Positions 12,450 through 64,000 of a DNA stretch of 64,000 nucleotides are shown here, in pieces. Both the position numbers and the translations under genes were made by a program. The stretch spans positions 6,773,001 through 6,837,000 of the forward strand of contig NZ_LT607413.1 in assembly GCF_900091495.1 (NCBI RefSeq), given 5' to 3'. This DNA comes from Micromonospora echinospora. GTDB lineage: Bacteria; Actinomycetota; Actinomycetes; Mycobacteriales; Micromonosporaceae. Numbering within the stretch: the first letter of the stretch is position 1; each line of letters begins with the position of its first letter. Below the pieces are notes generated by a model. The model did no database searches. It was not told the origin of the DNA and saw nothing but the letters and a program-made list of their open reading frames with translations.

Positions 12450-12499
12450 CCCACCCGAGGTGCCGGCGCTCGGCGCCGCCCCCGGTCCTCGCCTGCGGA

Positions 12500-12530
12500 C
12501 CGGCTCCCGCCACGACGCGGCGGGAACCGG
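12500..12530. terminator. Bidirectional hairpin between P450 and D-amino-acid oxidase
   Basis: Twelve-base arms CCGGCTCCCGCC and GGCGGGAACCGG pair with one mismatch around a 7-base loop. The hairpin sits 51 bases after the P450 stop and 7 bases before the end of the convergent gene. There is no U-tract, as usual in actinomycetes. Confidence 0.6.
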
Positions 12531-12536
12531 GTCCCC

Positions 12537-34203: not shown

Positions 34204-34382
34204 CGGTCACCTCGCTCTCCGATGACCGGGCGCGGTCGCGCCGGTCATCAGGTAGAGCCCGCCGGACGCCGGTTTCTTCACCGCCCACCGTCGACTTTCT
34301 CACCGCGTCGCCGTCGTCCGACCGGCGGTTCGCACCGAGGCTGGTTGGCGGGACGGCGACGTGCGCTTCTATGCTCCGGCGC

Positions 34383-38315: not shown

Positions 38316-38354
38316 GACGGGCTCCCGAGGCTTCGGAACGGACAGGTGCGGTGG

Positions 38355-39233: not shown

Positions 39234-39249
39234 GGGTCGGCTCCGGGGA

Positions 39250-42268: not shown

Positions 42269-42270
42269 GA

Positions 42271-43233: not shown

Positions 43234-43913
43234 AGGTCTGATTTCCTCTGGGACGGGGGTGGGGAAACCGCGGCCTGGAGCCGCGCGCGGGTCTTCCGCA
43301 GGTGTCGGTGCAGTTCGTTCTTGACGTCGGCGACCTTGCCGGCGGCGATGAGCGCCGAAAGGTCGTGGTGCTCCCTCGCCGACGGGGCGAGGTCGTCCAT
43401 GCGCTTGCCGGAGGCGTGCAGCAGGCCCTCGATGGTGGGGCGGAACTGGTTCCAGAGGACGTCGAGCCGGGTCAGGCCGGCGGCCTCGAAGAAGGAACTG
43501 TGGAAGCGGATGTCGGCGGTGGTGAACGCGGTGGCGTCCCGGGCGTCCGCCGCCGCGTCCATCTCGACCAGGGCGGCGGCCAGCCGGCTGGTGAGGTCGT
43601 CCCGGTTGGTGTCCATGGCACGTTCGAGGGCGAGCAGCTCGAAGGACTCCCGCAGGGCCATCAGCTCGTCGATGTCCGCCACGCTGAGCGAGAGCGTCAC
43701 CACGTTGCGACCGGTCCCGGTGACCAGCCCTTCGGCGCGAAGGATCCTGATGGCGTCCCGGACCGGGCCACGACTGACCCGGAACGACTCTGCCAGTTCC
43801 TCTTCCACGAGCCGGGTGCCGGCCGGGACGTCGCCCACGATGATGCGGCGACGCAGCTCGCCGGCGAGCTTCTCGCCGAGCGACTCCACCCGGATGGGCC
43901 TGACGTTCAACAC
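43230..43913 (-). CDS. GntR/FadR-type (FCD) transcriptional regulator
   Basis: A 227-residue regulator: an N-terminal winged helix (LVEEELAESFRVSRGPVRDA then IRILRAEGLV) and a helical FCD ligand domain (VADIDELMALRESFELLALE to LHRHLRKTR), with His/Asp residues suited to metal-assisted carboxylate binding. GTG 43913 follows CAGGAGG. It heads the eight-gene operon ending at 35176 and lies directly behind two palindromes covering its promoter, so it likely represses itself and the whole pathway until the acidic substrate binds. Confidence 0.92.
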   Translation of the reverse strand: MLNVRPIRVESLGEKLAGELRRRIIVGDVPAGTRLVEEELAESFRVSRGPVRDAIRILRAEGLVTGTGRNVVTLSLSVADIDELMALRESFELLALERAMDTNRDDLTSRLAAALVEMDAAADARDATAFTTADIRFHSSFFEAAGLTRLDVLWNQFRPTIEGLLHASGKRMDDLAPSAREHHDLSALIAAGKVADVKNELHRHLRKTRARLQAAVSPPPSQRKSDL

Positions 43914-43931
43914 CGGAAACCTCCTGGAAAC

Positions 43932-43946
43932 TGTTGACAGTTAACA
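43932..43946 (-). promoter_or_regulatory. GntR operator A, overlapping the -10 region
   Basis: TGTTGACAGTTAACA is palindromic apart from two positions that differ between the arms. It contains the presumed minus-strand -10 TTAACT (43944-43939), which lies 17 bases from TTGACC (43967-43962). It starts 18 bases before the GTG of the GntR gene. Confidence 0.7.
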
Positions 43947-43962
43947 CCGCGTTACCTGCACG

Positions 43963-43975
43963 GTCAACGGTTGAC
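43963..43975 (-). promoter_or_regulatory. GntR operator B, overlapping the -35
   Basis: Perfect palindrome GTCAACGGTTGAC (6-base arms around one base) covering the -35-like TTGACC. The half-site GTTGAC is shared with operator A, and the centres are 30 bases apart, about three helical turns, so two dimers could bind on the same face. Confidence 0.7.
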
Positions 43976-44104
43976 GAAGCGATTTTCGCTGGCCAGCCTC
44001 CTTCCGGCCGGGATGCCACGCCGGCAGAGCGGGACGGACCGGACGAGCGCGTACAGCCGGGACGGCCCGCCGTCCCTCCCGTCGAGGACGGGCGCGGACA
44101 GCAC

Positions 44105-44152: not shown

Positions 44153-45502
44153 TCAGCCCGACCGGGCGGCCACCCGCATCCGCATGCCGTGCTTCGGCGC
44201 GAGGGTGACCAGTGGCTTCAGCGCCACCTTCTGGTCCGGTTCGAGGGTGAACCGGAACCGCTGGGCGAGAGTGGCCAGGATCAGCTTCGCCTCCATCTCG
44301 GCGAAGCCGGCCCCGACACACATCCGCTCCCCGCCGCCGAACGGCATGAACGCGTACCGGGGGATCTGCGCCTCCCGCTCGGGGGCGAACCGCTCCGGGT
44401 CGAACCGCTCCGGGTCCGGGAAGTACCGCTCCAGGTGGTGCATCACGTACGGCATGATGAAGATCCCGCTGCCCCGGCGGATCCGATAACCACCCAGCTC
44501 GACGTCCTCCACCGGGGTGCGCTTGTTCAGCGTCCAGGCGGGCGGGCAGAAGCGCAGCGCCTCCTTGAAGACCATCCCGGTGTACCGCAGCCGGGGCAGG
44601 TCCTCCGCCGTCGGGGGCCGGTCCCCCAGCACCTCGTCCAGCTCCGCGCCGAGCTTCTCGGCCACCTCCGGGTGCTGGGATAGCAGGTACCAGGCCCAGG
44701 TCAGCCCGTTGGCGGTGGTCTCCTGACCCGCGACGAAGATGGTCACCGTCTCGTCGCGGACCTGCTGGTCGGTCATGCCGCTGCCGTCGTCCTCGTCCTG
44801 GGCGGTCAGGAACATCGACAACAGGTCACCCTGGTCCTCCGCACCGCTGGCCCGCCGCTCGGCGATGATCCGCATGACCGCCCGGTCGAGCACCCGGGTG
44901 CCGCGCTTGAGGAGCTGGTGCAGCGGCAGCAGCAGCCACGGCGACACCAGCATGCCGAACTTGCTGATGTTGATGGCGACGTCCTGGAGGCCGGCGACCG
45001 CCCGCTGGACCTTCAGCGCCTCGTCGTCGGAGACCCCGCTGCCGAACATCGCCCGGGACACCACGTTCAGCGTCAGCTTCATCATCTCGTGGTGCATGTC
45101 GTGCACCTCGCCCGACCGCCAGCCCTCGATCTGGCGCAGCGAGCTGTCCACCGCGATCTCGCCGTACCCGGTCATCCGCCGGTGGCGGAACGCCGGCTGC
45201 ACCAGCTTGCGCTGCCGGCGGTGGTGCGCGCCCTCGCTGGTGAGCAGGCCCCGACCCATCCAGCGGCCCAGCGTCCGCAGGTCGTGCGGGTCCTTGGTGA
45301 ACTTGTCCCGGCGCAGCACCAGCACGTCGTGGATGTGCTCCGGACTACTCAGCAGGTAGTTGCGGGTCGGCCCGATGGTGAACGACGCGATGTCGCCGTG
45401 CGTCGCCGTCTCGGTCATGAACTCCACCATGCCCCGGCCGAGGCCGGGCAGGTTGCCGAGCACCGGAACGCCCTTCGGCCCCGGTGGGTGACGGTCAGCC
45501 AT
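44153..45502 (-). CDS. Cytochrome P450, last gene of the PKS operon
   Basis: A 449-residue P450 of the longer, CYP4/CYP110-like kind: N-terminal PPGPKGVPVLGNLPGLGRGM, I-helix FVAGQETTANGLTWAW, ExxR in FKEALRFCPP, PERF-type segment FDPERFAPERE and heme loop FGGGERMCVGAGFAEMEAK with thiolate Cys395. Such enzymes usually hydroxylate fatty-acyl or other lipophilic chains. Its start overlaps the membrane-protein gene by 8 bases. A tailoring oxidation of the polyketide is the likely role; redox partners are not encoded nearby. Confidence 0.92.
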   Translation of the reverse strand: MADRHPPGPKGVPVLGNLPGLGRGMVEFMTETATHGDIASFTIGPTRNYLLSSPEHIHDVLVLRRDKFTKDPHDLRTLGRWMGRGLLTSEGAHHRRQRKLVQPAFRHRRMTGYGEIAVDSSLRQIEGWRSGEVHDMHHEMMKLTLNVVSRAMFGSGVSDDEALKVQRAVAGLQDVAINISKFGMLVSPWLLLPLHQLLKRGTRVLDRAVMRIIAERRASGAEDQGDLLSMFLTAQDEDDGSGMTDQQVRDETVTIFVAGQETTANGLTWAWYLLSQHPEVAEKLGAELDEVLGDRPPTAEDLPRLRYTGMVFKEALRFCPPAWTLNKRTPVEDVELGGYRIRRGSGIFIMPYVMHHLERYFPDPERFDPERFAPEREAQIPRYAFMPFGGGERMCVGAGFAEMEAKLILATLAQRFRFTLEPDQKVALKPLVTLAPKHGMRMRVAARSG

Positions 45503-46232
45503 TGCTCGTCTCCTTCACGCCCCCGCCGGCCCGCGCCGGCTCCACCGCACCCGCCCCGGGTACGCCCCGGCGCAGCGTCACCCCGATCCAGACGAACCAG
45601 ATCGGCGCGGCCAGGGCCCCGCCGAGGATCGCCGAGACCAGCACCATCGGGCCGATCCCGAAGGCCACCCCGAGCGCCGCCGTGCTGGTCAGCACGCCCA
45701 GCGCGATGCCCACGTAGGTCAGCGGCCGACTCAGCAGGCCGTGCCGCAGCGCGAGGATGTTCACCACCAGGAAGAACGGGCCGAGCGCGCCGAACCGCAG
45801 CCAGGTCGCCGGGTCCAGCCGCAGCAGCAGGTCGGTGGTGACGATCGCGGTCCGCACCGTCTCGTCCCCGCCGGCGTAGTCGGCCGTCCAGAGCGGGGTC
45901 GCGGTGACCAGGCGGAACGTCTCGACCGCGGTCACCCCGAAGGAGAGGTACGCCAGACCGGTGGTCCAGCGCACCCACCCTTCGTGCTTGTCGCGGACCA
46001 GGTCGGCGATGGCCGGGATCGCCCCGAACGCGAAGACCGCGCCGAGGGCGTACCCCCAGTAGTAGAGGATCCGGGGGGTGCCGTTCTCGGCCAGCTCCGT
46101 CCAGAGCCGGTGTTTGTCGTCGTGGATGAGCTGCGTCGGGTCGAGCACGAAGAAGGTGGTGACCACGACGTAGGAGACACCCACCAGGATCGCGCAGGTG
46201 CCGCCGAGTCTGTTCAACCGGTTGTCGTGCAT
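45495..46232 (-). CDS. DUF4386-like integral membrane protein
   Basis: A 245-residue protein with about six membrane helices, starting LNRLGGTCAILVGVSYVVVT, and a conserved-looking loop LRLDPATWLRFGALGPFFLV. It resembles DUF4386-type membrane proteins with no known function. The ATG at 46232 is preferred over the in-frame ATG at 46241, since the GAGGAG ribosome site then has 9-base rather than zero spacing. Lying between two P450 genes and overlapping one, it belongs to the polyketide operon. Export, membrane anchoring of the P450s or resistance are all possible. Confidence 0.75.
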   Translation of the reverse strand: MHDNRLNRLGGTCAILVGVSYVVVTTFFVLDPTQLIHDDKHRLWTELAENGTPRILYYWGYALGAVFAFGAIPAIADLVRDKHEGWVRWTTGLAYLSFGVTAVETFRLVTATPLWTADYAGGDETVRTAIVTTDLLLRLDPATWLRFGALGPFFLVVNILALRHGLLSRPLTYVGIALGVLTSTAALGVAFGIGPMVLVSAILGGALAAPIWFVWIGVTLRRGVPGAGAVEPARAGGGVKETSNG

Positions 46233-46256
46233 AGGGGACATCTCCTCGTGCCGCCG

Positions 46257-47639
46257 TCAGGCCGACGGGCGGCGTGGTTCGAGGGTCATCCGCAGCCCGT
46301 ACCGAGGGCTGGTGGTGACCTGCATCTTGGGTTCGACCGGGTGCCCCGGCACCATGCGCAGCCGGTACCGCTGAGCGATCGTCGCCAGGGTGAGCTGCGC
46401 CTCCAGTTGGGCGAGCCGGTTGCCGATGCACAACCGGGGGCCACCGCCGAACGGGAAGTACGCGAACCGGGGCCGGTCGGCCGACCGCTCCGGGGTGAAC
46501 CGGTCGGGGTCGAACCGCTCCGGGTCCTCCCAGAAGTCGGGGTGCCGGTGGGTCAGATACGGGCTGATGTAGATCAGCGAACCGGCCTTGACGTGGTACC
46601 CGCCGAGGGTGTCCGCGCCGGCCGCCCGCCGCTCCAACCAGGGCACCGGGTAGAGCCGCAGCGTCTCCTCCAGCACCCGGTTGGTGTACTCGAGCTGCGG
46701 CACGTCCGCCACGGTGGGCAGCCGGTCGCCGAGCACCCGGTCGAGTTCCTCGTGCAGCCTCGCCTCGATCTCCGGGTTGCGGGACAGCTCGTACCAGGCC
46801 CAGCTGAGCTGGTTGGAGGTCGTCTCGTAGCCGCCGAGCAGCAGGGTGGCGATCTCGTCGCGTACCTGCCGGTCCGACATGCCCTCGCCGGTGTCCTCGT
46901 CCCGCGCCTCCAACAGCATCGACAGCAGGTCGTACGGCTGCTCGTCCTGCGCGCGGCGCTCCCCCATGATCCGGTAGATGATGCCGTCCAGTTCGGCCAT
47001 GGCCGTGGTGAACTCCCGGTTGCGCCGGGTGGGCACCTTCGGCGGCGGCGCGAAGGGCACCATCGTCCGGTAGAGGCAGTAGTTGATCACCGTGTCCAGG
47101 CTGCGGGCGATCGCCGTCACCTCGCCGTCCCCGCGCAGTCCCGTGCTGAACAGCGACTTCGTAGCCACGTTCATGGACAGGTTGACCATCTCCGCGGCGA
47201 CGTCCAGGGACTCGCCGCGCTCCGCGTACGACTCCCACCGGGCGATCCGCTCCACCACGTCGGCGACGATGAACTCGCCGAGCTTGAGGATCCGCTGCCG
47301 GTGGAAGGCCGGCTGCATCAACCGCCGCTGCCGCAGCCACGAGTCGCCGTCGTTGGTGAAGAGCCCCGCACCGAAGGCAAGCTTCAGGGGCCGGTACTCG
47401 TGCGACTGCTTGTCGTAGTTCTTGCTGTTCACCTGCAACACGTGGCGCAGGTGGTCGGGGTGGGTGATCAGGTGCACGGTGAACCCGGCGACGGTGAACC
47501 GCACGATGTCGCCGTACTCGGCGCTGACCTGACCGAGGAAGCCGATCAGGTCACGCCGTAGGTCGAGCAGGCTGCCGAGCAGGAACGTGCCGCGCGGCCC
47601 GGGAGCCAGGCGCGGTGCGGACGGGTTCGCGGTCACCAC
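46257..47639 (-). CDS. Cytochrome P450 directly after the type III PKS
   Basis: A 460-residue P450. Visible are APGPRGTFLLGSLLDLRRDL at the N-terminus, I-helix LLGGYETTSNQLSWAWYELS, ExxR in EETLRLYPVPW, FDPDRFTPERSADRPRFAYF, and the heme loop FGGGPRLCIGNRLAQLEAQL with Cys404. It is a paralogue-like relative of the P450 at 44.2 kb. The start codon GTG (47639, or the adjacent GTG at 47636) overlaps the end of the type III PKS gene, a tight coupling that suggests it acts on that enzyme's product. Confidence 0.92.
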   Translation of the reverse strand: MVTANPSAPRLAPGPRGTFLLGSLLDLRRDLIGFLGQVSAEYGDIVRFTVAGFTVHLITHPDHLRHVLQVNSKNYDKQSHEYRPLKLAFGAGLFTNDGDSWLRQRRLMQPAFHRQRILKLGEFIVADVVERIARWESYAERGESLDVAAEMVNLSMNVATKSLFSTGLRGDGEVTAIARSLDTVINYCLYRTMVPFAPPPKVPTRRNREFTTAMAELDGIIYRIMGERRAQDEQPYDLLSMLLEARDEDTGEGMSDRQVRDEIATLLLGGYETTSNQLSWAWYELSRNPEIEARLHEELDRVLGDRLPTVADVPQLEYTNRVLEETLRLYPVPWLERRAAGADTLGGYHVKAGSLIYISPYLTHRHPDFWEDPERFDPDRFTPERSADRPRFAYFPFGGGPRLCIGNRLAQLEAQLTLATIAQRYRLRMVPGHPVEPKMQVTTSPRYGLRMTLEPRRPSA

Positions 47640-48760
47640 TGGAGCAGGACCGCCTCTTGCGAGAAGCCCGGCCCCATCCCGACGACCAGCCCGTAGGTGC
47701 CGGGCTCCAGGTCGTACGACGAGAAGGTCTCGTCCATCATGTAGAGCACGGTCGGCCCGGACACGTTGCCGACGGTGCGCAGGACGTGCTGGCTGAGCTT
47801 GAGGTTCTCGGCGGTCAGGCCGAACTCCTCCGCCGTCGCGGTCAGCACCTTCGGGCCGCCGGGGTGGATCAGCCAGTGCCCGATCTGGTCGACGGTGAGG
47901 TCGTGGTCGGCCAGCAGCGGGTCGAGCACCGGCCGGAGACCGGTCTTCGCCAGGCCGGGCACGTCCACGCTCAGCCGGTTGCGGAACCCGTTGTCCAGCA
48001 CGTCCACCCCGGCGACGTGCAGGGTGTCCGGCAGGAAGCCGGAGCGGGTGTCCACCACCCGGGGCAGCCCCGGCTTCGCCAGCGGGTGCTCGTCGCCGAC
48101 CATCAGGGTCGCCGCCACGCCGTCGCCGAACAGGGCGACCGTGACGATCTGCGACACCAGGTCGGTGTAGAAGGAGCTCTCGGTCAGGTCGCGGTCCAGC
48201 GCCTCCTGGAGGTAGCCCTGCACCCCGCCCTGCCAGAACGCGGTGCCGCCCAGCTCGCAGGTGAGCAGGATGACCGCCTCGGTCGGGTGGCCCTTGAGGT
48301 AGTCGGCCACCCGGCTCAGCCCGGCCACGCCGGCCATGCAGCCCAGGCCGTTGATCGGGACCCGCTTCATGGTGGGCGCGAACTCGATCCGGTTGATCAG
48401 GATCGCGTCCACGGTGGGCACCGACACCACCGTGCTGAGCATGGAGGTGAACTGGTGGATCTCGGTCGAGGCGATGCCGGCGGTGGCCAGCAGCTTGCGG
48501 ACGGTCTTCTCGCAGAGGTCCGCGGCCTCCTCGACGCAGCGGGCGGCGACGGTGCTGAACGGCGGCGGGTCGAAGAAGGTGTCCAGCGGCATCGCGAAGT
48601 AGCGACCGTCGATCTGGGTGTTGTGGAAGAGACTGTCGATGATGTCCAGGTCGATGTCGAGCCCGATCGCCTGGCAGTACTTCCGCAGCGTCGTGGCGAG
48701 GGTCTGCTGATCGTAGTAGTAGGTGGGCAGGCTGGTCTCGGTGGCGACGATGTACGGCAC
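47633..48760 (-). CDS. Type III polyketide synthase (alkylresorcinol/pyrone-synthase-like)
   Basis: A 375-residue chalcone-synthase-fold enzyme. The triad is Cys141 in GLGCMAGVAGL, His299 in IHPGGPKV and Asn332 in GNVSGPT; it ends in the GMGPGFS loop. The Cys motif and helix (SRVADYLKGHP) resemble mycobacterial and other bacterial enzymes that load long acyl chains, not DpgA. Between LLTCELGGTAFW and VALFGDG there are about 20 more residues than in DpgA or usual family members. The true start is GTG 48760, with AAGGAGG 5 bases upstream; the open frame runs much further inside the neighbouring PKS gene. It lies 11 bases after the type I PKS stop, so it may receive that line's chain. Confidence 0.92.
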   Translation of the reverse strand: MPYIVATETSLPTYYYDQQTLATTLRKYCQAIGLDIDLDIIDSLFHNTQIDGRYFAMPLDTFFDPPPFSTVAARCVEEAADLCEKTVRKLLATAGIASTEIHQFTSMLSTVVSVPTVDAILINRIEFAPTMKRVPINGLGCMAGVAGLSRVADYLKGHPTEAVILLTCELGGTAFWQGGVQGYLQEALDRDLTESSFYTDLVSQIVTVALFGDGVAATLMVGDEHPLAKPGLPRVVDTRSGFLPDTLHVAGVDVLDNGFRNRLSVDVPGLAKTGLRPVLDPLLADHDLTVDQIGHWLIHPGGPKVLTATAEEFGLTAENLKLSQHVLRTVGNVSGPTVLYMMDETFSSYDLEPGTYGLVVGMGPGFSQEAVLLQW

Positions 48761-48771
48761 CGGTCCTCCTT

Positions 48772-51700
48772 CTAGGAAACGCGGTTGTCGGTGGGAACTG
48801 CGACGTGCGGCGCGTCGAGCCGCGCCAGGTCGTGCGTGAGTCGTCCGGAGAGCGCGGCCAGCAGTCCGGCGCGCTCCCGCTGGACGAAGAAGTGGTCGCC
48901 GGGGAGCATCTCCAGGGCGAACCCGGAGGTGGTCTGGTCCCGCCAGGCGGCGAGTTGCTCCTCGGTGACCTTGTCGTCCCGCTCGCCGCCGAAGACGGTC
49001 AGCGGAACGTCCAGCGGCGGCTCGGTCTGGTGGATGCGGGTCTCCACCAGGGCGAAGTCGGCGCGCAGCACCGGCAGGTACAACGCGATCGTCTCCGGGT
49101 CGCCGAGCATCTCCTCGGGCGTGCCGTCCATCGCCCGCAGCTTCTCGATCAGCCGGGCCTCCGGCAGCCGGTGCAGCGGCGGTTCCAGGTCGGGCAGGTG
49201 CGGGGCACGGGCCGCCGAGACGTACAGGTGGGCGGGGGCGGGCAGCTCCCGACGGCGCAGGTGCCGGGTCAGCTCGTACGCGACCAGTCCGCCCATGCTG
49301 TGCCCGAACAGCGCGAACGGCCGGTCGAGGTACGGCCGCAGCACCGCGCCGAGGGTCTGCACCAGCGCGGACATCTGGGTGAACGCCGGTTCCCGGTGCC
49401 GCTGCTCCCGGCCGGGGAGCTGGATCGGGCACACCTGCACCCCGTCGGGCAGCTCGCCGGGCCAGGTGCGGAACAGCGCCGCGTTGCCGCCCGCGTACGG
49501 CAGGCAGAACAGCCGGAGTCGGGCGTCCAGGTCCGGGGCGCCCCGGACCAGCCAGTCGGCGGGGTCGGTGCTGACCTCCACGGCGTTCGGCCGGGCCAGA
49601 CCGGTCGACCGACGCGCCACCACCGTCCGGGGCACCGACGCCGACTGCGGCACCGCCGCCCCGACGGCCGGATCCGGCGACCCGTCGGGAGGGGCCGGCG
49701 ACCCGTCGGGGGCGGGAGCCGGGCCGTCCACCTGGGCCAGGACGTGACCGACGATCTGGTCGACGGTGATCCCGGAGAGGAAGTCCTGGGCGGCGATCTG
49801 CGTGCCGTACATGACCCGGAGGCGGTTGCGCAGCTCGAAGACCATCAGCGAGTTCAGGCCGAGCCCCAGCAGGGGCTGGTCCACCTCGAGCTGCTGCGGC
49901 TGGAGTCCCAGCACCGCCGCGATCTGCTCCCGCAGGTAGCCGGTGAGGACCGTCTTGCGGCGGTCGGGGGCGACGGTCAGCAGCACGGCCCGACTGGTCG
50001 GCGGGGCCGTGACAACCTCGTGGTCGGCCGCGCCGGCCGTGGCGCGGTCGTCGACCGGCCCGCCGGAACCGGCGGCGCGGAGCCGGGGCACGGCGGCCGG
50101 GGCGACCGTGCGCGCGCCCGCCGGGGTGGCCGCGCGGACGCCGAGCGTGGACCGCAGTCCGGTCACCTCGGCGACCGGACGCAGCTCGGCGTCGAGGAGC
50201 CGCACGTCGCCGGTGAGCGTGTCGTCGCCGACCTCGCGGAGCTGGACGTGCGCCCACAGCTCGCCGGTCGCCCGCCGGTGCGCCCGCAGCCGCTCGACGG
50301 CCATGGGCCGGTACCCGGCGGTGGCGGCGGCCGGGTCCGGCGCGACGACCGGAAGCAGGTCGAACACGCCGTCCAGCAGCCGCCAGTCCAGCGGCGACCC
50401 ACCGTCGGCCGCCGGGGCGGCGAGCAGCGCCAGCAGTTCGCCGTCGCGCCGCCACAGCCGCCGCACGGTACGCGCGCCCGCGCTGTCGGGCAGCCCCGCC
50501 GCGATCCGGCTGTTCCGGTACGCGTCGCCCGGCACCTCGGTGCCGCACCGCTGCCGGATCGCGTCCGGGGTCTCCTGCGGCAGCAGGTACGGCCGCCCGG
50601 CGGCGGTGACGGTGCGCAGGGCGCCCCGGGCGTGCCGGGTCCACGGCCCGTCCACCCCGGCGGGTCGGCCGAACACCTCCCACCCGGCGGTGCCGTCGCG
50701 TGGGCCGGTGACCGCCACCTGGGCGACGCTCCCCGGGCCCTGGGCCGCCTCGAACGTCACGTCGGTCAGCGCGCAGGCCGCCGTACCGGCCAGGGAGGCC
50801 GCCGCGGTGAGCGCCAGGTCCAGGTGGACGGCCTCGGGCACGGCCGGTCGGTCGTCGAGGTCCGGCCAGGCGGACCGGTCGACGGGCAGCTCCCAGAAGT
50901 GCTCACCACCGGGCGCGGCGGCCCGGAAGTACCGCTCGGTCGACGACGGTACGGCGGCCACCGCCGGGCCGGTCGACGTCGCTCCGGTCGACCCGAACTC
51001 CAGCCAGCAGCGTTGCCGCTGCCACGGGTAGTACGGCAGGCGCAGCACCGGCCGGTCGGTCGGGTGCTGGCGACGCCAGTCCACCCGGTGACCGAGCGTC
51101 CAGAGCGCGCCGAGGGTACCGAGCAGCACGGACCGCTCGTCCTCGTCCCGGCGCAACGAGGGCAGCGCCGCCACCGGCCGGTCGGCGTGCCGCGCGCACT
51201 GCTCGACCGAGGGCAGCAGGATCGGGTGCGGGCTGATCTCGATGACCGCCGTCGGCGCGCTCTCCAGCAACTGGCCAAGCACGGTGGAGAAGAGCACCGG
51301 CTCGCGCAGGTTGTCGGCCCAGTAGTCGGCGGTGAACTCCCGCCCGTCGGTGGGCCGGCCGGTGACCGTGGAGTGGATCGGCACCGTCGACTCGCGGGGC
51401 CGGACGTCGCGCAGCTCGGCGAGCAGGTCGGCACGGAGTTCGTCCACCTGCGGGCTGTGCGAGGCGAAGTCCACCTTCACCTGCCGGCAGAACACGTCCC
51501 GCTCGGTGAGCGTCTTCAGCACCGTCTCGACGGCGGTGGTGTCGCCGGAGAGGACGGTGGAGGTGGGGCTGTTGCTGACCGCGATGGCGAGCTGGTCCTC
51601 CAGGCCGGCGATGGCGGCCCGCGCCTCGGCCAGCGGCAGCTCCACCACGGCCATCGTGCCCCGGCCCCGGATCCGCCGAACCAGCCAACTACGCCGGCAG

Positions 51701-53733: not shown

Positions 53734-56700
53734 GGTGGTTCCTGTTCCGTGGCTGGGAGAGTTCCTGCTCCAGGAGGGCTTCGACCTCGGCGTCGGAGAG
53801 CTGTTCGATCTCCGCGAGCCAGGCGTCCCGATCCGTGTCGACGACCGCCGCCGCCGTCCGGGTCGGGGGCGGGCCGGTCGGTTCGGCCGGTTCGGCGGGC
53901 TGGAGTTCCCCGGCGACGAATCCGGCCAGCGCCTCGACGGTCGGGTAGTCGAAGAGCACCGTCGCGGGCAGCGACCGGTCGACGCTGAGGCTGAGCGCGT
54001 TGCGCAACTCCACCGCCATCAGCGAGTCCAGGCCGAGTTCGTTGAGCGGACGCCGGGTGTCCAGGGTGTGCGCGGCGGTCAGGCCGAGCACCCGGGCCGC
54101 CAGGTCCCGCACGTGCCCCACGATCAGGTCGGGCCGGTCGTCGGGGGCCGCGTCGGCCAGCAGGGTCAGCAGCGCCCGGTGGTCGGCGCCACCCGCCGCC
54201 GGAGCCCCCGCGTCCGCCGTGGTCGCGGCCATGTCGTCCAGCAGCGGGGGCCGCAGCCCGGTCGGGTACTGCCGCAGGTAGGCGCCCCACTCGATGGCGA
54301 CGACACCCACCTGCGCGCGGGGCTGGCCGAGCGCCGCCGCCAACTCGGCGACCCCCCGCTCCGGGTCGATCAGTCCCATGCCGCGCAGCGCCCACTGCCG
54401 GTCGTCGTCGACGCGGGCGGCCATGCCCGCGCCCCGCCACGGACCCCAGTTGACGCTCAGCCCCGGCAGCCCCTGCCGCCGCCGTTCGGCGGCCAGCAGG
54501 TCGAGGAAGGCGTTTCCGGCCGCGTAGTTGCCCTGCCCGGCGGAACCGAGCATCGAGGCGACCGACGAGAACAGCACGAAGAAGTCCAGGTCGAGGCCGC
54601 GGGTGGCGTGGTGCAGGTTCCACGCCCCGGCGAGCTTCGGCCCGAGCACCCGCTCGAAGCGCGGCCACTCCTGCTGGAGCAGGATGCCGTCGTCCAGCAC
54701 GCCGGCCGCGTGGACGACCCCGCGCAGCGGCGGCAGGGTCGCGGTGACCTCGTCGACCAGCCGGGTCACCTCGTCCGGGCGGGCGATGTCGGCGCGGACC
54801 ACCTCGACCCGGGCGCCGGCGTCGCGCAGCGCCGCCACGTCCGCCCGGTTGGCGTCGGTGACGCCGCTGCGGCCCACCAGCACCAGGGCGCGGGCACCCC
54901 GGTCGACCAGCCAGCGCGCCACGTGCAGGCCAAGCCCGCCCAGACCACCCGTGATCAGGTACGCCCCGTCGGCGCGGACCAGGTCGTCGGCCTCCGGCGG
55001 CACGGTGGCGTCGTCGTGGCTGACGACGATCTTGCCGACGTGCCGGGCCTGCGCCATGTACCGGAACGCGTCGACCGCCCGGGTCAGCCCGAACACCCGG
55101 CACGGCAGCGGCTGGAGCGTGCCGGCGGCGAACCGCCGCATCAGCTCGCCCAGCAGGGCACGCACCGTCGCCGGCTCGTCCCGGGAGAGCTCCACCAGGT
55201 CGAACGCGGTGTAGGTGACGTCGTCCCGGAGCCGGGTCACCTGGTCGGCCGACCAGATCTCCCGCTTGCCGATCTCGACGAACCGCCCGCCGGGGCGCAG
55301 CAGGCGCAGGCTCTCGACGATGAAGTCCCCGGTCAGCGAGTTGAGGACCACGTCGACGCCAGCACCGCCGGTCCATGCGCGGATCTCGTCGGCGAACGTC
55401 AGGGTCCGCGAGTTCGACAGGTGCCGGACGCCCAGTCGTTGCAGCACCGGCCACTTGGCGGGGCTCGCCGTCGCGTATACCTCGGCGCCGACCGCCTGGG
55501 CGAGCTGCACTGCGGCCAGGCCCACCCCGCCGGCCGCCGCGTGGACCAGCACCCGCTGCCCCGGGCCGAGCCGGGCGATGTGCTCCAGCGCGTACAGGGC
55601 GGTCAGGAAGGTCACCGGGATGGTCGCCCCGTCGGCGTCCCCGACCACCGCCGGCAGCGGGGCCACCAGGTCGGCGTCGACGGTCACGAAGCTGCCGAAG
55701 CTCGCCGGGGCCAGGGCCACCACCCGGTCCCCCACCGCGAGCCCGCGCACGTCCGCGCCGAGCGCCACCACCTCGCCGACGCACTCCAGGCCGAGCGGTC
55801 CCGCCTCACCCGGGTACATGCCGAGCGCGTTGAGCACGTCGCGGAAGTTCAGGCCGGTCGCCCGGACCCGCAGCTCCACCTGGCCGGCCGCCGGTGCCTG
55901 CCGGGCCACCGGCCGGAACACCAGCTGGTCCAGCACCCCGGGGGTCGCCACGTCGAGCCGGAACGACTCGACGCTGGGCAACGCCAGCGGCCGGTCGCCG
56001 TCGTCCGCCGCGCAGCGGGCCAGGCGGGCCACGTGCCGCTGGTCGCCGCGCCGGACGACCTGGTCGTCCCGGCCGTCGGCCCGCAGCTCGGCGGTCAGGA
56101 ACGCGAGGTCGGCGGCCGGATCGCCGGTCGGGTCGAGGTCGATCCTGGTGCAGCGCAGCTCGGGGTGTTCCAGGGCAACCGCGCCGGCCAGCCCCCACAG
56201 CGGGGCCTGCGCCAGCGCCAGCGGTCCGGCCGGCTCGCCGACCGCCTGCGCGCCCCGGGTCACCAGGTACGTCCGGGGCGACCGGCTGCGGGTCGCCAGG
56301 GCCCGGACCAGGTGCAGGGTGCTGCGCAGCGTGGTCGACTGGGCGTCCTGGAGGGTCGCCAGGTCGACGTCGGGGTCGGCGGGCGTGTCCAGCGCCCACA
56401 GGTGCAGCACGCCCCGCCAGTCGACGGCGCCGACCGCGTCGAGCAGCCGGGTGACGTCCTCCGGGCGGGCCGGGTCGATCCGGTACGACTGCGCGTCGTC
56501 CTGGGCGAACGCCGTACCGGGCCGGACGAGGGTGCAGGTGTGCCCCTCGGCGGTCAGCCGGGCCGCCAGTTCCCGGCCGAGCCCGTCCGCGTCGCCGAAG
56601 ACCAGCCAGGCACCCGGTCCGGCGGGGGCCTCGGCGGGCTCGGCCGGGCCGGCGACCGGCCACGTGATCTCGTAGCGCAGGTCGTCGGTCCGGGCCGGGG

Positions 56701-59700
56701 CGCGGCGTAGCGCCGCCGGGTCGACGTGCCGCAGCCGCAGGCCGCGCAGCTCCACGACCAGCCGGCCGGCGCGGTCCACCACCACGACGTCCCCGACGAC
56801 CTCCCCGGTGGTGGACCCGCTGCTCCAGGCGTACGCCCGCAGCTCCGCATCGGTGGACGGGACGGCCCGCAGCCGCTCCACCCGGAACGGGACGTGGATC
56901 GACAGGCCGTCCTCCGGTTGTGGCCGGGTCAGGCCCAGCAGTTGGAAGCAGGCGTCCAGCAGCCCGGGATGCACCGGGTAGGGCACGGTCGGGTCGAGCT
57001 GGCCAGGCAGCCGGATGTCGCTCACCGCCACTCCGTCACCGGCGTGGACCCGGTCCAGCCAACGGAAGCTCGGCCCGAGGTCCAGCCCGGCGTCGGTGAC
57101 CCGGCGGTAGAAGGTGTCGAGGTCGTCGAGGGACCGGTCGCAGCGTGCGGCGATCCCGTCCAGGTCCGGTGGCGTCGGTCCCGGTTCGCCGTCCGGGTCG
57201 AGCCGGGCCGTGACGTACTCCGTCCAGTCCGGGTCGTCGAAGGTCACCAGTCGCGCGGTGCCGTCCGCCGCCGTGACGACCGTCTGCACCGGACGCTCAC
57301 CCCGGTCCGGCAGCACCAACGGTTGGGCGAACAGGACGTCCCGCAGGGCAGGGGCCGGGGTGCCGCTTTCGGTTCCCGCCGCCAGGAGCATGGCGACGTG
57401 ATGCGCGCCTGGCACCACGAGCTGGTCGTGCAGCTTGTGCTCGGCCAGGAGCGGGTAGGTCGCCGCGCTCAGGGACGCCTCGAAGACCGTGTCCCGCAGC
57501 GAGGGCGTCCGCAGCCGTTGACCGAGCAGCGGGTGGTCGCCCGCCCGACGGCGGGTCTGGCTGCCCGGCGCGGGCGCCGACCAGTAGCGTTGGCGTTGGA
57601 AGGGGTACGTGGGCAGGTCCACCGCCCGGGACGGGATTCCGCCGGTGATCGCCTTCCAGTCCAGGTTCACACCCTGCGCGTACAGGCCCGCGACGGCGGT
57701 CAGCAGTTGCTGCCAGTCGTCCCGGCCCCGCCGCAACGACGGCAACCAGCTCATGGCGCTGTCGTCGTCCACACACTGCCGGCCCGCCGCCAACAACACC
57801 GGATGCGGACCGACCTCCTGCACCACGTCACAACCCAGTGCGACGACCGCCCGCATCCCGTCGGCGAACCGCACCGGAGCCGACACGTGCTCCACCCAGT
57901 AGGCCGCAGACGCGACCCGATCGTCGGCGGTCCGGCCGGTCACGTTCGACACCAGCGTCCGCTGCGGCGACCGGAACCCCACCGACCCGGCGACCTCCTG
58001 GAACGCCGGGATCATCGGCGCCATCAACGGCGAATGGAAGGCGTGCGAGACGTGCAACGCCGTGGTCTTCACCCCGTCGGCCGTGAACTTCTCCCGGATC
58101 GCATCCAGCGCCTCCACCGGGCCGGCGATCACCGTCTCCACCGGACCGTTCACCGCCGCCACGACCAGACCGGTGCCGTCCAGGAACGGACGGACCCTCT
58201 CCTCCGGCAGCGACACCGCCACCATCGACCCACCCGCCGGCAAACCCTGCATCAAACGGCCACGTGACGCCACCAGACGCAGCCCGCCCTCCAGCGAGAA
58301 CACCCCCGCCACACACGCCGCGACAAGCTCACCGACGCTGTGACCCAGCACCACGTCCGGCTCGACACCCCAGTGCCGCCACAGCCGGGCCAACGCCCAC
58401 TCCACCGCGAACAACACCGGCTGCGTGAACCCCGTCTGATCCAGCACATCCGTGCCGTCGGACGGGAAGAGCACCTCCAACAGCGGCCGTTCGAGCTCCC
58501 CCGCCAGCAACTCCGCGCACCGGTCCAACTCGGCGCGGAACACCGGCTCCGACTCGTACAGGACACGCGCCATCCCCACCGACTGCGCACCCTGACCCGT
58601 GAACAACCAGCCCACCCTCGGCCGGCGACCGGCAGGCACCACGCCATGGACGACCGACCGGTCCTCCTCACCCGCCAACCAACCCCGCAACCGGACGACA
58701 GCGGTGGCCGAATCCCGAGCCACCACCGCCAGACGGTGCGGGAAGTGACTACGAGTCACCGCAGCCGCCGCACACACCAACCCGAGGTCAGGGGCGTCGA
58801 CACCGTCCAGCAGATCCACGTACCGCTGCGCCACCACCCGCAACGCGGCCTCGTCCCGCGCCGACAACGGCAACACGTACGCCGAACGACCGGGCACCTC
58901 CGACGAAGCCGCCGGCTCCGGTGCCTCGCCGACGACGACGTGGGCGTTGGTCCCGCTCATGCCGAAGGAGCTGAGGCCGGCGACGCGGGGGCGCTCGCTT
59001 CGGGGCCAGGGGGTCGGGGCGACCGGGACCCGGACCGGGAGGCCGTCCCAGTCGATGTGCGGGTTCGGCGTACGGAAGTGCAGGTGCGACGGCATCTGTT
59101 CGTGCCGCAACGCCAACACCAGCTTGATCAGACCGGCCACCCCGGCGGCGGCCTCCAGGTGCCCGATGTTGGTCTTGACCGAGCCCACCAGCAGCGGGCG
59201 GTCAGTCGGCCGGCCCTTGCCGAGCACCGAGGCGAGGGCGCGCACCTCGATCGGGTCGCCCAGCGAGGTGCCGGTGCCGTGCGCCTCCACGTAGTCGACG
59301 TCGCCCGGCTCGACGCCGGCGTCGGCGAGGGCTGCCCGGATCAGGTCCTGTTGCGCCAGGCCGTTCGGGACGGTCAGGCCGCCGCTCGGGCCGTCGTGGT
59401 TCACGGCGGTGCCCCGCACGACCGCGAGCACCCGGTCACCGTCGCGCTGGGCGTCCGACAACCGCTTCAGCACCACCACGCCACAGCCCTCGCCCCGGCC
59501 GTAACCGTCGGCGGAGGCGTCGAAGGTCTTGCACCGGCCGTCCACGGCGAGGGCCTTCATCTTCGACAGCGTGACGAACGCGTCCGGCGCGAGCATCGCG
59601 TTGACCCCGCCGACCAGGGCCAGGTCGGTTTCGCCCGCGCGCAGGCTCCGGGTCGCCAGGTGCAGCGCCACCAGCGACGACGAGCACGCGGTGGTGACGG

Positions 59701-60310
59701 CCATGCTCGGCCCCTGCAACCCGAGCAGGTACGACAGCCGCCCGGCCGGGAAGCTCAGGTCGTTGCCAGTGCCGGCGTACAGGTCGAGCTGGGTGGGGTC
59801 GCCCGCGCCGGTCTGCAACTGGAGGTAGTCGTTGGTCATGATGCCGACGAAGACCCCGGTCGGCGTTCCGACGAGACGGTCCGGCACCTGACCGGCGTGC
59901 TCCAGGGCCTCCCAGGACACCTCCAGCAGCATCCGCTGCTGCGGGTCGAGGCTGGCGGCCTCCCGCGGGGCGATGCCGAAGAAGGCCGGGTCGAACTGGT
60001 CGACCCCGTCGACGAAGTGCCCCTCCCGGGTGTACATGCGGCCGGGCCGGTCCGGGTCCGGGTGGTAGAAGTCCGCCAGGTTCCAGCGGTCCGGGGGCAC
60101 CTCGCCGGCCGCGTCCACGCCGTCGCGCAGCACCCGCCAGAAGGCGGCCAGGCCGTCACCGCCGCCGGGAAAGCGGCAGCTCGCGCCGATGATGGCGATC
60201 GGTTCGTGCTGGGCCCGCCGGACCTCGTCCAGCTCGGCTTCCAGTTCCTCGATGGCGACGAACGCACGCAGGAGCGCGGACTGCTCGCCGCGCGTCGGGT
60301 CTTCGGTCAT
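53726..60310 (-). CDS. Type I PKS, fully reducing module KS-AT-DH-ER-KR-ACP
   Basis: A 2194-residue single module. KS ~36-460 (Cys209 in TTACSSSL, EAHGTGT, NIGHLE). AT ~567-880 (Ser658 in GHSVGE; HAFH motif, malonyl-CoA). DH ~925-1195 (His958 in AEHKLHDQLVVPG; Asp in HPGLLDACF). ER ~1455-1765 (LNFRDVLNALGMYPG, HAAAGGVG). KR ~1780-1960 (GGLGGLG; LDD motif, so B-type alcohol; SSVAS and QGNYAAGN). ACP Ser2096 in GLDSLM. It adds a saturated two-carbon unit from malonate. The start overlaps the preceding PKS stop (ATGA), the end overlaps the next PKS by 8 bases, and docking helices lie at both ends. Its AT DNA is nearly duplicated in the preceding PKS. Confidence 0.95.
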   Translation of the reverse strand: MTEDPTRGEQSALLRAFVAIEELEAELDEVRRAQHEPIAIIGASCRFPGGGDGLAAFWRVLRDGVDAAGEVPPDRWNLADFYHPDPDRPGRMYTREGHFVDGVDQFDPAFFGIAPREAASLDPQQRMLLEVSWEALEHAGQVPDRLVGTPTGVFVGIMTNDYLQLQTGAGDPTQLDLYAGTGNDLSFPAGRLSYLLGLQGPSMAVTTACSSSLVALHLATRSLRAGETDLALVGGVNAMLAPDAFVTLSKMKALAVDGRCKTFDASADGYGRGEGCGVVVLKRLSDAQRDGDRVLAVVRGTAVNHDGPSGGLTVPNGLAQQDLIRAALADAGVEPGDVDYVEAHGTGTSLGDPIEVRALASVLGKGRPTDRPLLVGSVKTNIGHLEAAAGVAGLIKLVLALRHEQMPSHLHFRTPNPHIDWDGLPVRVPVAPTPWPRSERPRVAGLSSFGMSGTNAHVVVGEAPEPAASSEVPGRSAYVLPLSARDEAALRVVAQRYVDLLDGVDAPDLGLVCAAAAVTRSHFPHRLAVVARDSATAVVRLRGWLAGEEDRSVVHGVVPAGRRPRVGWLFTGQGAQSVGMARVLYESEPVFRAELDRCAELLAGELERPLLEVLFPSDGTDVLDQTGFTQPVLFAVEWALARLWRHWGVEPDVVLGHSVGELVAACVAGVFSLEGGLRLVASRGRLMQGLPAGGSMVAVSLPEERVRPFLDGTGLVVAAVNGPVETVIAGPVEALDAIREKFTADGVKTTALHVSHAFHSPLMAPMIPAFQEVAGSVGFRSPQRTLVSNVTGRTADDRVASAAYWVEHVSAPVRFADGMRAVVALGCDVVQEVGPHPVLLAAGRQCVDDDSAMSWLPSLRRGRDDWQQLLTAVAGLYAQGVNLDWKAITGGIPSRAVDLPTYPFQRQRYWSAPAPGSQTRRRAGDHPLLGQRLRTPSLRDTVFEASLSAATYPLLAEHKLHDQLVVPGAHHVAMLLAAGTESGTPAPALRDVLFAQPLVLPDRGERPVQTVVTAADGTARLVTFDDPDWTEYVTARLDPDGEPGPTPPDLDGIAARCDRSLDDLDTFYRRVTDAGLDLGPSFRWLDRVHAGDGVAVSDIRLPGQLDPTVPYPVHPGLLDACFQLLGLTRPQPEDGLSIHVPFRVERLRAVPSTDAELRAYAWSSGSTTGEVVGDVVVVDRAGRLVVELRGLRLRHVDPAALRRAPARTDDLRYEITWPVAGPAEPAEAPAGPGAWLVFGDADGLGRELAARLTAEGHTCTLVRPGTAFAQDDAQSYRIDPARPEDVTRLLDAVGAVDWRGVLHLWALDTPADPDVDLATLQDAQSTTLRSTLHLVRALATRSRSPRTYLVTRGAQAVGEPAGPLALAQAPLWGLAGAVALEHPELRCTRIDLDPTGDPAADLAFLTAELRADGRDDQVVRRGDQRHVARLARCAADDGDRPLALPSVESFRLDVATPGVLDQLVFRPVARQAPAAGQVELRVRATGLNFRDVLNALGMYPGEAGPLGLECVGEVVALGADVRGLAVGDRVVALAPASFGSFVTVDADLVAPLPAVVGDADGATIPVTFLTALYALEHIARLGPGQRVLVHAAAGGVGLAAVQLAQAVGAEVYATASPAKWPVLQRLGVRHLSNSRTLTFADEIRAWTGGAGVDVVLNSLTGDFIVESLRLLRPGGRFVEIGKREIWSADQVTRLRDDVTYTAFDLVELSRDEPATVRALLGELMRRFAAGTLQPLPCRVFGLTRAVDAFRYMAQARHVGKIVVSHDDATVPPEADDLVRADGAYLITGGLGGLGLHVARWLVDRGARALVLVGRSGVTDANRADVAALRDAGARVEVVRADIARPDEVTRLVDEVTATLPPLRGVVHAAGVLDDGILLQQEWPRFERVLGPKLAGAWNLHHATRGLDLDFFVLFSSVASMLGSAGQGNYAAGNAFLDLLAAERRRQGLPGLSVNWGPWRGAGMAARVDDDRQWALRGMGLIDPERGVAELAAALGQPRAQVGVVAIEWGAYLRQYPTGLRPPLLDDMAATTADAGAPAAGGADHRALLTLLADAAPDDRPDLIVGHVRDLAARVLGLTAAHTLDTRRPLNELGLDSLMAVELRNALSLSVDRSLPATVLFDYPTVEALAGFVAGELQPAEPAEPTGPPPTRTAAAVVDTDRDAWLAEIEQLSDAEVEALLEQELSQPRNRNHHE
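57581..58403. repeat. AT-coding repeat, copy in the fully reducing module
   Basis: This 823-base stretch, coding the C-terminal part of the AT and the post-AT linker, matches 63178-64000 with no net length change. Identity by eye is roughly 85-95 percent at the DNA level, with runs of 30 or more identical bases around CACACACTGCCG and CATCCCGTCGGCG. The match continues beyond the window edge in the other copy. Confidence 0.85.
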
Positions 60311-63300: not shown

Positions 63301-64000
63301 CAGTTGCTGCCGGTCGTCCCGGCCGCGCCGCAACGACGGCAACCACCGCACCGACCCGTCGTCGTCCACACACTGCCGACCCGCCGCCAACAACACCGGA
63401 TGCGGACCGACCTCCTGCACGACGTCACAACCCTGTGCGAGGACCGCCCGCATCCCGTCGGCGAACCGCACCGGAGCCGACACGTGCTCGATCCAGTAGT
63501 CCGCCGAGCCGTACCCGGTGTCGGCCACCTCGCCGGTCACGTTCGACACGACCGTGCACCGCGGACCCTGGGGGCTGATCCCCTGGACCGTCGCCCGGAA
63601 CGCCGGGATCATCGGCGCCATCAGCGGTGAGTGGAACGCGTGCGAGACATGCAACGCCGTGGTCTTCACCCCGTCGGCCGTGAACTTCGCCCGGACCGCG
63701 TCCAGCACGTCGGCGGGGCCGGCGATCACCGTCTCCACCGGACCGTTCACCGCCGCCACGACCAGACCGGTACCGTCCAGCAGCGGACGGACCTCGTTCT
63801 CCGGCAACGGCACCGCCGCCATCGACCCACCCGCCGGCAACGCCTGCATCAACCGGCCCCGAGCCGCCACCAACCGCAGCCCGTCCTCCAGCGTCAGCAC
63901 GCCGGCCACACACGCGGCCACCAGCTCGCCGACGCTGTGACCCAGGACCACGTCCGGCTCGACACCCCAGTGCCGCCACAGGCGGGCGAGCGCCCACTCC
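60307..64000 (-). CDS. Type I PKS module, partial: AT-DH-KR-ACP (5' end outside window)
   Basis: The frame is open to the right edge; the KS and the front of the AT lie beyond it. Visible domains in order: AT from its middle (GHSVGE, HAFH motif, malonyl-CoA), DH (His in [13 protein letters not shown], Asp in HPGLVDASF), KR ([11 protein letters not shown] at the stereo motif, SSAAS and QANYAAAN) and ACP (GLDSLM), then a charged C-terminal docking helix. There is no ER, so the module should leave a trans double bond. More modules may lie upstream, so starter unit and chain length are unknown. It is coupled to the next PKS through an ATGA overlap. Confidence 0.93.
63178..64000. repeat. AT-coding repeat, copy in the partial module
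   Basis: Partner of the 57581-58403 repeat, same orientation and same length to the window edge. The DH regions that follow diverge much more, so the similarity is concentrated in the AT, which fits recent duplication or gene conversion of this domain. Confidence 0.85.

What the first reader, a model, noticed from the sequence alone, without database searches (positions are those of the whole stretch)
44153..64000. Mixed type I / type III polyketide operon with two P450s
Three type I PKS proteins, a type III PKS, two P450s and a DUF4386-like membrane protein form one tightly overlapping operon. The final type I module has no active reductive domains and a TE, so it ends in a beta-keto chain, a natural primer for a type III enzyme that adds malonates and closes a resorcinol or pyrone ring. 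Transfer of a modular type I chain to a type III PKS is known in only a few systems (cylindrocyclophane-type alkylresorcinols, some mycobacterial loci). A polyene/alkyl chain with P450 tailoring would be a new combination as far as I can tell.
Basis: partly seen in the sequence, partly recalled or inferred. Interest (0 to 1): 0.8.

Follow-up and report, generated by a model that had tools for sequence, protein, structure and literature searches.

The report
Cyanobacteria-like hybrid polyketide pathway in Micromonospora
A Micromonospora bacterium carries a 50-kilobase gene cluster in which a long modular enzyme line appears to hand its unfinished chain to a small ring-closing enzyme of a kind best known from cyanobacteria, so it may make an undescribed ringed natural product, which can be tested directly.

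Summary
The block is 50.1 kb and 16 genes (44153-94227; 30 kb lies beyond the window), one tight operon: seven type I PKS proteins, a beta-methyl-branching cassette (HMG synthase, three enoyl-CoA hydratases, donor ACP), a type III PKS, two P450s and a DUF4386 protein. All 16 recur in order in three other Micromonosporaceae genomes; a further genome has both flanks without the block. The type III enzyme falls in the CylI (paracyclophane) group, nearest in sequence to cyanobacterial members, and not with other actinobacterial type III enzymes. In 22 of 25 cyanobacterial CylI-group loci an ACP-TE end lies upstream of the type III gene (in 21 within 350 bases), as here. The last type I module has a dead dehydratase, so it should present a beta-ketoacyl chain, giving an alkylresorcinol (or pyrone), probably C-methylated. 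The chain is not a polyene. No ligase, halogenase or CylK is in the block. A P450 beside type I/type III genes is already reported in mycobacteria. Chain transfer and product are inferred, not shown. Verdict: a new variant of the CylI-type hybrid system, in a phylum where my searches found no published example.

The parts
47633..48760 (-). Type III PKS of the CylI group, 375 aa, GTG start; Cys-His-Asn triad present
   Evidence: PDB CylI E 4.8e-115; tree; triad in 4 genomes; start, ribosome site
48772..53733 (-). PKS7, last type I module: KS-AT-(dead DH)-ACP-TE, 1653 aa
   Evidence: ACP-TE matched upstream of the type III gene in 22 of 25 cyanobacterial loci
53726..60310 (-). PKS6: KS-AT-DH-ER-KR-ACP, 2194 aa
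60307..64000 (-). PKS5: KS-AT-DH-KR-ACP, 1867 aa, continues to 65910 outside the window
46257..47639 (-). Cytochrome P450 a, 460 aa
   Evidence: PF00067, 305 bits; best PDB matches 7wzl and 3dbg
45495..46241 (-).
   Evidence: PF14329, 31.1 bits, cut-off 27.6; matched in all three syntenic genomes
44153..45502 (-). Cytochrome P450 b, 449 aa; last gene of the block
   Evidence: block end shown by the uninterrupted site

Best explanation
This is the 3' half of a 50-kb hybrid type I/type III polyketide cluster that works like the cyanobacterial CylI systems. SHOWN BY SEQUENCE: gene content, domain order, active-site states, synteny in four genomes, a type III enzyme of the CylI group, and a TE-ended non-reducing module directly before it. 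INFERRED: a starter on the N-terminal ACP of PKS1 is extended by PKS1 and PKS2 (both fully reducing). At PKS3/PKS4 a beta-keto group becomes a beta-methyl branch through the HMG-synthase cassette. PKS4b leaves a hydroxyl, PKS5 a double bond, PKS6 a saturated unit. PKS7 adds a probably methylmalonyl-derived unit and leaves a beta-ketone. The TE passes this alpha-methyl-beta-ketoacyl chain to the type III enzyme, which adds two malonyl units and closes a ring, most likely a 5-alkyl-4-methylresorcinol (alternatively a pyrone). The two P450s oxidise ring or chain.
For: Type III enzyme: CylI is the best PDB match, 4.8e-115 against 3e-57 for the next. In a 92-row tree it lies in a 64-row CylI group (99) that excludes the genome's three other type III enzymes and two other actinobacterial ones. 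Asn at position 266 in 17 of 18 rows of A1, its own included. ACP-TE upstream of the CylI-group gene in 22 of 25 cyanobacterial loci, 21 within 350 bases. TE tree: 20 of 20 cyanobacterial rows and the 13-row clade of Micromonospora-type TEs share one 70-row group, support 86. Over 20 loci, type III distances follow TE (r 0.86) better than AT (0.76) or KS (0.73). Dehydratase of PKS7 dead in 4 of 4 genomes. HMG synthase matches PksG/CurD, donor ACP matches CurB. All 16 genes in order in three other genomes, the type III protein being the most conserved against each (95-98%).
Against: No biochemistry here. Membership of the CylI group does not by itself mean a hybrid: six proteobacterial and myxobacterial loci of that group show no ACP-TE, and the branching order among its Micromonospora, cyanobacterial, proteobacterial and myxobacterial lines is unresolved. 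The KS of PKS7 joins none of the cyanobacterial terminal-KS groups, so the whole last module was not inherited as one unit. TE-group support (86) is below 95, and its comparison proteins were found by similarity to PKS7. The TE could simply hydrolyse the chain. The type III line has one-residue insertions compared with the cyanobacterial enzymes (A1), so product type cannot be read across. No gene in the block obviously loads the first ACP. No decarboxylating KS was found: 8 of 8 KS keep Cys. AT rules are recalled, from no call. In G071 P450b reads in two frames as deposited.
Confidence: 0.68

Rival explanations
1. Same handoff, but the type III enzyme makes an alpha-pyrone (tri- or tetraketide lactone) and not a resorcinol.
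For: The alpha-methyl group and the line's loop insertions (A1) could change cyclisation; the next PDB relative after CylI is named an alpha-pyrone synthase, Pks11; Larsen 2021 leaves pyrones open (PMC8086630 section 15).
Against: Same group as CylI, whose product is a resorcinol (PMC8086630); same Asn at the position that I align by hand with CHS Phe265 (CHS sequence recalled).
Confidence: 0.2
2. The TE hydrolyses the chain to a free acid that is the product; the type III enzyme is an independent alkylresorcinol synthase that takes acyl-CoA from fatty-acid metabolism, as LosA does.
For: A lone type III gene of M. endolithica made alkylresorcinols from host fatty acids when expressed in S. albus (PMC7587189, passages); the TE is of the general PF00975 type; CylI-group genes without ACP-TE neighbours exist.
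Against: The type III gene lies 11 bases after PKS7 and overlaps the P450 gene, is kept with the block in four genomes and absent with it in G013, and is the most conserved protein of the block.
Confidence: 0.17
3. The type III enzyme makes an aromatic starter unit for the type I line, as in kendomycin or dihydroxyphenylacetate pathways.
For: Such type I/III hybrids are a known actinobacterial kind (DpgA, Ken2, VemA in PMC8086630).
Against: Not in that clade: the genome's DpgA-like enzyme is window 472-1626, 27-28% identical to the orthologues of this enzyme in three relatives. The block's ECH genes sit with the HMG synthase and are of the branching kind by context; the type III gene's neighbour is the last, TE-bearing module, and the first module has its own ACP.
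Confidence: 0.04

Closest known systems
Cylindrocyclophane/carbamidocyclophane/merocyclophane (7.7-paracyclophane) clusters of cyanobacteria
   Same: CylI-group type III PKS just after a non-reducing KS-AT-ACP-TE module; HMG-synthase and ECH genes seen in one of 25 such loci within the DNA held (L023); resorcinol proposed as end step
   Different: No AMP-binding ligase, halogenase, CylK or ICMT-type methyltransferase in the block; eight KS domains in seven proteins against two type I PKS proteins in cyl (PMC8086630); two P450s and DUF4386; actinobacterial host; probable methylmalonyl in the last module
Mycobacterial 2x type III pks locus (mmar_2470-2474; Pks10/Pks11 kin)
   Same: Actinobacterial; three type I PKS genes with type III PKS genes and a downstream P450; the enzymes make methylated products, one of them methylated alkylresorcinols (PMC5916927, passages)
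   Different: Two type III genes flanking the type I genes; Pks11-type enzyme is a weaker match here; the passages I saw describe no TE-linked handoff or beta-branching cassette
Microcystis MKS cluster
   Same: Hybrid type I/III cluster lacking CylC and CylK, product unknown (PMC8086630 section 11)
   Different: Has an AMP-binding ligase fused to ACP, and transporters; cyanobacterial
Loseolamycin LosA, Micromonospora endolithica
   Same: Type III PKS making alkylresorcinols, same genus (PMC7587189, passages)
   Different: Expressed as a lone gene; chain comes from the host's fatty acids; the paper's text has no 'type I PKS' and no 'P450' (term counts)

Membership tests
CylI-type hybrid type I/type III system | Type III enzyme in the CylI group | tested here: met
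CylI-type hybrid type I/type III system | Intact Cys-His-Asn triad | tested here: met
   4 of 4 genomes
CylI-type hybrid type I/type III system | Non-reducing last type I module with TE (or ACP) just before the type III gene | tested here: met
CylI-type hybrid type I/type III system | TE of the same lineage as cyanobacterial CylI-linked TEs | tested here: inconclusive
   one group, support 86; comparison set biased
Paracyclophane (cyl/cab/mer) cluster | AMP-binding (fatty-acyl) ligase and loading ACP | tested here: not met
   An N-terminal ACP is fused to PKS1, but no AMP-binding ligase among the 15 genes scanned with Pfam; the 16th, ECHc, is an ECH by 55% identity to ECHa
[quoted passage not shown]
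   Every gene of the block is assigned to another family; the rest of the genome was not searched for them
Paracyclophane (cyl/cab/mer) cluster | Product is a dimeric paracyclophane | not testable with these tools
   No metabolite data
HMG-synthase beta-branching cassette | HMG synthase, donor ACP, two types of ECH | tested here: met
   that the two ECH kinds are the dehydratase and decarboxylase types is recalled
HMG-synthase beta-branching cassette | Decarboxylating KS with replaced Cys | tested here: not met
   8 of 8 KS domains keep Cys in 4 genomes
DpgA/Ken2/VemA starter-forming type III PKS | Dpg-type partners and placement with such enzymes | tested here: not met
   Two ECH-type partners lie with another type III gene at 472-4491; that enzyme is outside the CylI group
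Type I to type III chain transfer | Demonstrated acyl transfer from ACP/TE to the type III enzyme | not tested
   Needs biochemistry

The most novel reading that the evidence does not exclude
A TE plus CylI-type PKS pair is a portable chain-terminating device: the TE acyl-enzyme hands beta-ketoacyl chains of any upstream line straight to the type III cysteine. It has been attached to unrelated KS modules within cyanobacteria and, in Micromonospora, to a long beta-branching line, giving a C-methylated resorcinol with a branched chain that two P450s then oxidise: a product class for which I know no described example (recalled; compound databases were not searched).
Probability: 0.3. Interest if true: 0.8.

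Novelty: new variant of a known kind. Interest (0 to 1): 0.6.

Why it matters
[quoted passage not shown] This locus puts its hallmark, a CylI-group enzyme behind a TE-ended module, with a complete modular line, into Micromonospora, a culturable genus, in at least four genomes of the family. It offers a natural comparison for how a modular PKS gives its chain to a type III enzyme: across loci the TE tracks the type III enzyme more closely than the KS does. It also marks a specific metabolite to look for.

Tried and rejected
Anthranilate starter idea: a tryptophan-dioxygenase-like, kynureninase-like and methyltransferase trio (94981-98313, + strand) sits next to PKS1 in three genomes and suggested an aromatic starter. 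Rejected as part of the cluster: the kynureninase-like gene is in 51 of 160 genomes of the genus at E up to 1e-50 while a close type III copy is in 3 of 160, and G013 has the trio without the block.

Independent insertion sites: I first took the flanks of G128 as unrelated to the window's. Not so: G128 shares the dioxygenase-like trio, and its first gene past P450b (on the opposite strand) matches the window's 34371-35003 gene. Only G312 has a different setting on both sides, apart from a 65-residue fragment.

'Sister to cyanobacteria' for the type III enzyme: the tree leaves the order of the four lines in the CylI group open, so I claim the group only. Because of this and the previous point I lowered the main reading from 0.72 to 0.68.

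Co-inheritance of the whole last module: the KS tree did not support it. I kept only the weaker claim about TE and type III enzyme.

Assembly artefact for the tandem ATs in PKS1: rejected, both copies occur in 4 of 4 genomes.

Literature: searches listed no paper whose title or abstract start reports a CylI-type gene in an actinobacterium. Listings were capped (15 of 142; 15 of 37; 15 of 18; 12 of 116; 20 of 100), I opened four papers, and the library lacks most subscription journals. Nakamura 2012 (cyl cluster) is known to me only second-hand from PMC8086630 and recall; AT, KR and DH motif rules are recalled.
Full report
WHAT IS THERE. The window is 6773001-6837000 of a 7.78-Mb single-contig genome. 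PKS7 is 90-93% identical over ACP-TE to proteins of Micromonospora echinospora and M. pallida, so the genus is Micromonospora. I read 57 kb to the right and 20 kb to the left and called genes by frame and third-position GC. The finding is the 3' half of one minus-strand operon of 16 genes, 94227 to 44153. In order of transcription, window coordinates, those above 64000 outside the window: PKS1 86110-94227 (ACP-KS-AT-AT-DH-ER-KR-ACP); PKS2 79563-86090 (KS-AT-DH-ER-KR-ACP); PKS3 76793-79570 (KS-AT, no ACP); ECHc 76038-76787; HMG synthase 74767-76014; ECHb 73955-74764; ECHa 73234-73980; ACP 72958-73206; PKS4 65911-72915 (KS-ACP without AT, then KS-AT-KR-ACP); PKS5 60307-65910 (KS-AT-DH-KR-ACP); PKS6 53726-60310 (KS-AT-DH-ER-KR-ACP); PKS7 48772-53733 (KS-AT-dead DH-ACP-TE); type III PKS 47633-48760; P450a 46257-47639; DUF4386 45495-46241; P450b 44153-45502. 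Starts of PKS2, HMG synthase, ECHc and the type III gene are my choice within longer frames. Gaps between neighbours run from -26 to +42 bases.

LIMITS OF THE CLUSTER. All 16 genes are matched in the same order in three other genomes held without names: G071, G128 and G312. The tool places G312 in another genus of the family. Identity to the window: type III 95-98%, cassette genes 90-98%, P450s 86-97%, DUF4386 84-90%, PKS proteins 73-96%. In G071 P450b is matched in two pieces in two frames (residues 1-296 and 298-449), so it is broken as deposited. Right side: the trio of genes beyond PKS1 is shared by G071 and G128 but not by G312. Left side: the window's genes at 36678-43913 are shared by G071 only; in G128 the next gene past P450b matches the window's gene at 34371-35003, so G128 lies in the same chromosomal neighbourhood without that stretch. 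G013 has no type III match in the search of 160 genus genomes. There, DNA matching window 35186-44024 is followed after 78 bases by DNA matching 95345-98314, so the 51.3 kb in between is absent. The block is therefore a gained (or lost) unit with about the limits given. In G312 a 65-residue piece of the flanking dioxygenase-like gene still sits beside PKS1 and runs into sequence that looks to me like a serine recombinase (by eye), so that flank seems to have travelled with the block.

RARITY. Matches to the type III enzyme: 6 of 160 genus genomes at E up to 1e-30, of which 3 (own included) are 98-100% identical and 3 only 30-34%; 4 of 354 in the family at 1e-60; 2 of 397 in an order sample, the own genome and one at 38%; 1 of 396 in a phylum sample, the own genome. 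These sets overlap. In the protein search (648 matches among 8000 scored, 120 listed) relatives at 68-96% (15 entries) and one at 55% come before a long list at 53% and below, many of which carry cyanobacterial names.

THE TYPE III ENZYME. Its best solved relative is CylI (8ysp, E 4.8e-115); the next is mycobacterial Pks11 (3e-57). The genome scan with alignment A1 kept the best 80 of 96 confirmed loci, 25 of them cyanobacterial. I collected 119 rows (window, 29 of the 120 listed proteins, 89 loci) and dropped 27 distant ones (L045, L049, and 25 of L062-L087). In the resulting 92-row quick tree the Micromonospora line with two environmental relatives (20 rows, support 97) and the cyanobacterial CylI line (34 rows, 97) lie in one 64-row group (99), together with a proteobacterial line (7 rows), the myxobacterial L036 and two rows at its base; the order among these lines is not resolved. 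The genome's three other type III enzymes and two other actinobacterial ones (L060, L107) fall outside. Cys, His and Asn are intact in 4 of 4 genomes. The residue that I align by hand with CHS Phe265 is Asn, as in 17 of 18 rows of A1, window included. Larsen et al. report Gln or Asn there for the CylI clade (PMC8086630 section 15).

THE HANDOFF. I searched 81 loci with pieces of the block. An ACP-TE match lies upstream on the same strand in 22 of 25 cyanobacterial loci; in 21 it ends within 350 bases of the type III match, in L035 1.4 kb before. The three misses are L021 (contig begins 245 bases before), L033 and L037. None of six proteobacterial or myxobacterial loci of the group (L029-L032, L034, L036) has it; L036 has a type I PKS without a TE instead. 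In a tree of TE-like stretches (154 rows from 141 proteins, 13 of which gave two rows) 20 of 20 cyanobacterial rows and the 13-row clade with the Micromonospora TEs fall in one 70-row group, support 86. Two more cyanobacterial loci (L008, L028) had only partial TEs and were not in it. The KS domains tell another story: in a tree of 81 rows (chosen from 150 collected) the cyanobacterial terminal KSs fall in about four groups. KS7 joins none of them but a group (97) with KS1 of its own cluster and the KS of L036. Over 20 loci (22 collected, two dropped for want of an AT), distances of the type III enzyme correlate with TE at 0.86, AT 0.76, KS 0.73; for 17 cyanobacterial loci alone 0.77, 0.70, 0.58. 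In each of these tests 0 of 2000 permutations reached the value, so only the order is informative, and I did not test whether the differences are significant. My reading: TE and type III enzyme stay together while upstream modules are exchanged. This is what a direct functional partnership would give, but neighbourhood on the DNA alone could contribute.

PREDICTED CHEMISTRY (inference). The DH of PKS7 lacks its histidine motif in 4 of 4 genomes, and the Asp motif is also eroded, so a beta-ketone should remain. The DHs of PKS5 and PKS6 keep His but have Asp for the motif's Gly (HxxxDxxxxP); I take them as active, the more so because PKS6 has an ER, but this is not tested. AT motifs (rules recalled): PKS1 and PKS7 methylmalonyl-like (GHSMGE with VASH/FASH), PKS2 and PKS4b-6 malonyl-like (AFH), PKS3 unclear (YASH). 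HMG synthase, a CurB-like donor ACP and ECHs of two kinds (ECHa/ECHc 55% identical; ECHb 30-31% to them) imply a beta-methyl branch near PKS3/PKS4. Open: no KS has lost its Cys (8 of 8), PKS3 has no ACP, and the first half of PKS4 has lost its AT while linker sequence remains; PKS3 may supply that AT in trans. The chain is mostly saturated with one hydroxyl and one or two double bonds, not a polyene. Two malonyl units added to an alpha-methyl-beta-ketoacyl chain and an aldol closure with loss of CO2 would give a 5-alkyl-4-methylresorcinol. Nothing in the block identifies the starter or its loader.

COMPARISON WITH PRINT. Larsen et al. [quoted passage not shown] The M. marinum paper (passages) describes three type I genes flanked by two type III genes with a P450 downstream, which sits uneasily with that last statement and means that type I + type III + P450 as a list is not new in actinobacteria. 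Loseolamycin (passages) is a lone type III product from the same genus. The CylK paper (passages) names CylI as a resorcinol-forming enzyme. My searches found no report of a CylI-type cluster in an actinobacterium (calls and caps under Tried and rejected); they cover open-licence papers only.

VERDICT. Real, well bounded, conserved and rare: a new variant of the CylI-type hybrid, not a paracyclophane cluster (ligase, halogenase and CylK looked for in the block and absent). Interest 0.6: the phylum jump, the long branched line and the TE-type III partnership are surprising and testable, but the core principle is known and the product is unproven.

Noticed in passing
PKS1, window coordinates 86110-94227 (outside window): Two AT domains in tandem, both with intact Ser motif; 96-99% identical within each of four genomes but 80-84% between species (91-95% between G000 and G071), i.e. 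homogenised copies of an old duplication.
   Followed up: partly
PKS4-6, window coordinates 53726-72915: The malonyl-type AT motifs of three modules are identical or nearly so within a genome and differ between genomes, suggesting gene conversion among modules.
   Followed up: no
PKS4 first half, about 70600-72915, and PKS3 76793-79570 (outside window): KS-ACP half-module with the AT missing between retained linker sequence, next to a KS-AT protein without ACP; how they cooperate is unexplained.
   Followed up: partly
window 1-4491 and about 12 kb to the left (L007): Separate cluster: three-module NRPS with TE and an aminotransferase, DpgA-like type III PKS (472-1626) and two ECH-type genes (2329-4491), probably a dihydroxyphenylglycine peptide.
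   Followed up: partly
L118 (G013) 1238-13127 against window 35186-44024 and 95345-98314: Clean uninterrupted site without the 50-kb block.
   Followed up: yes
G312 upstream of PKS1 (L103-L106): A 65-residue fragment of the dioxygenase-like flanking gene runs into sequence that looks like a serine recombinase (by eye).
   Followed up: partly
G071 P450b orthologue (L097/L098): The gene reads in two frames as deposited: broken, or a sequencing error.
   Followed up: no
window coordinates 104946-118306 (L108): A further NRPS-PKS cluster with a MupA/Atu3671-type luciferase-like monooxygenase, largely shared with G071.
   Followed up: no
window 36678-42469: Fucose-isomerase-like (below the Pfam cut-off), DHDPS-like and TctA/TctB genes beside a GntR/FCD regulator (43230-43913): looks like an uptake and breakdown locus for an organic or sugar acid.
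   Followed up: no
L020 6183-7556: A P450 directly after the CylI-type gene in Hyella patelloides, about 31% identical to both P450s here.
   Followed up: no
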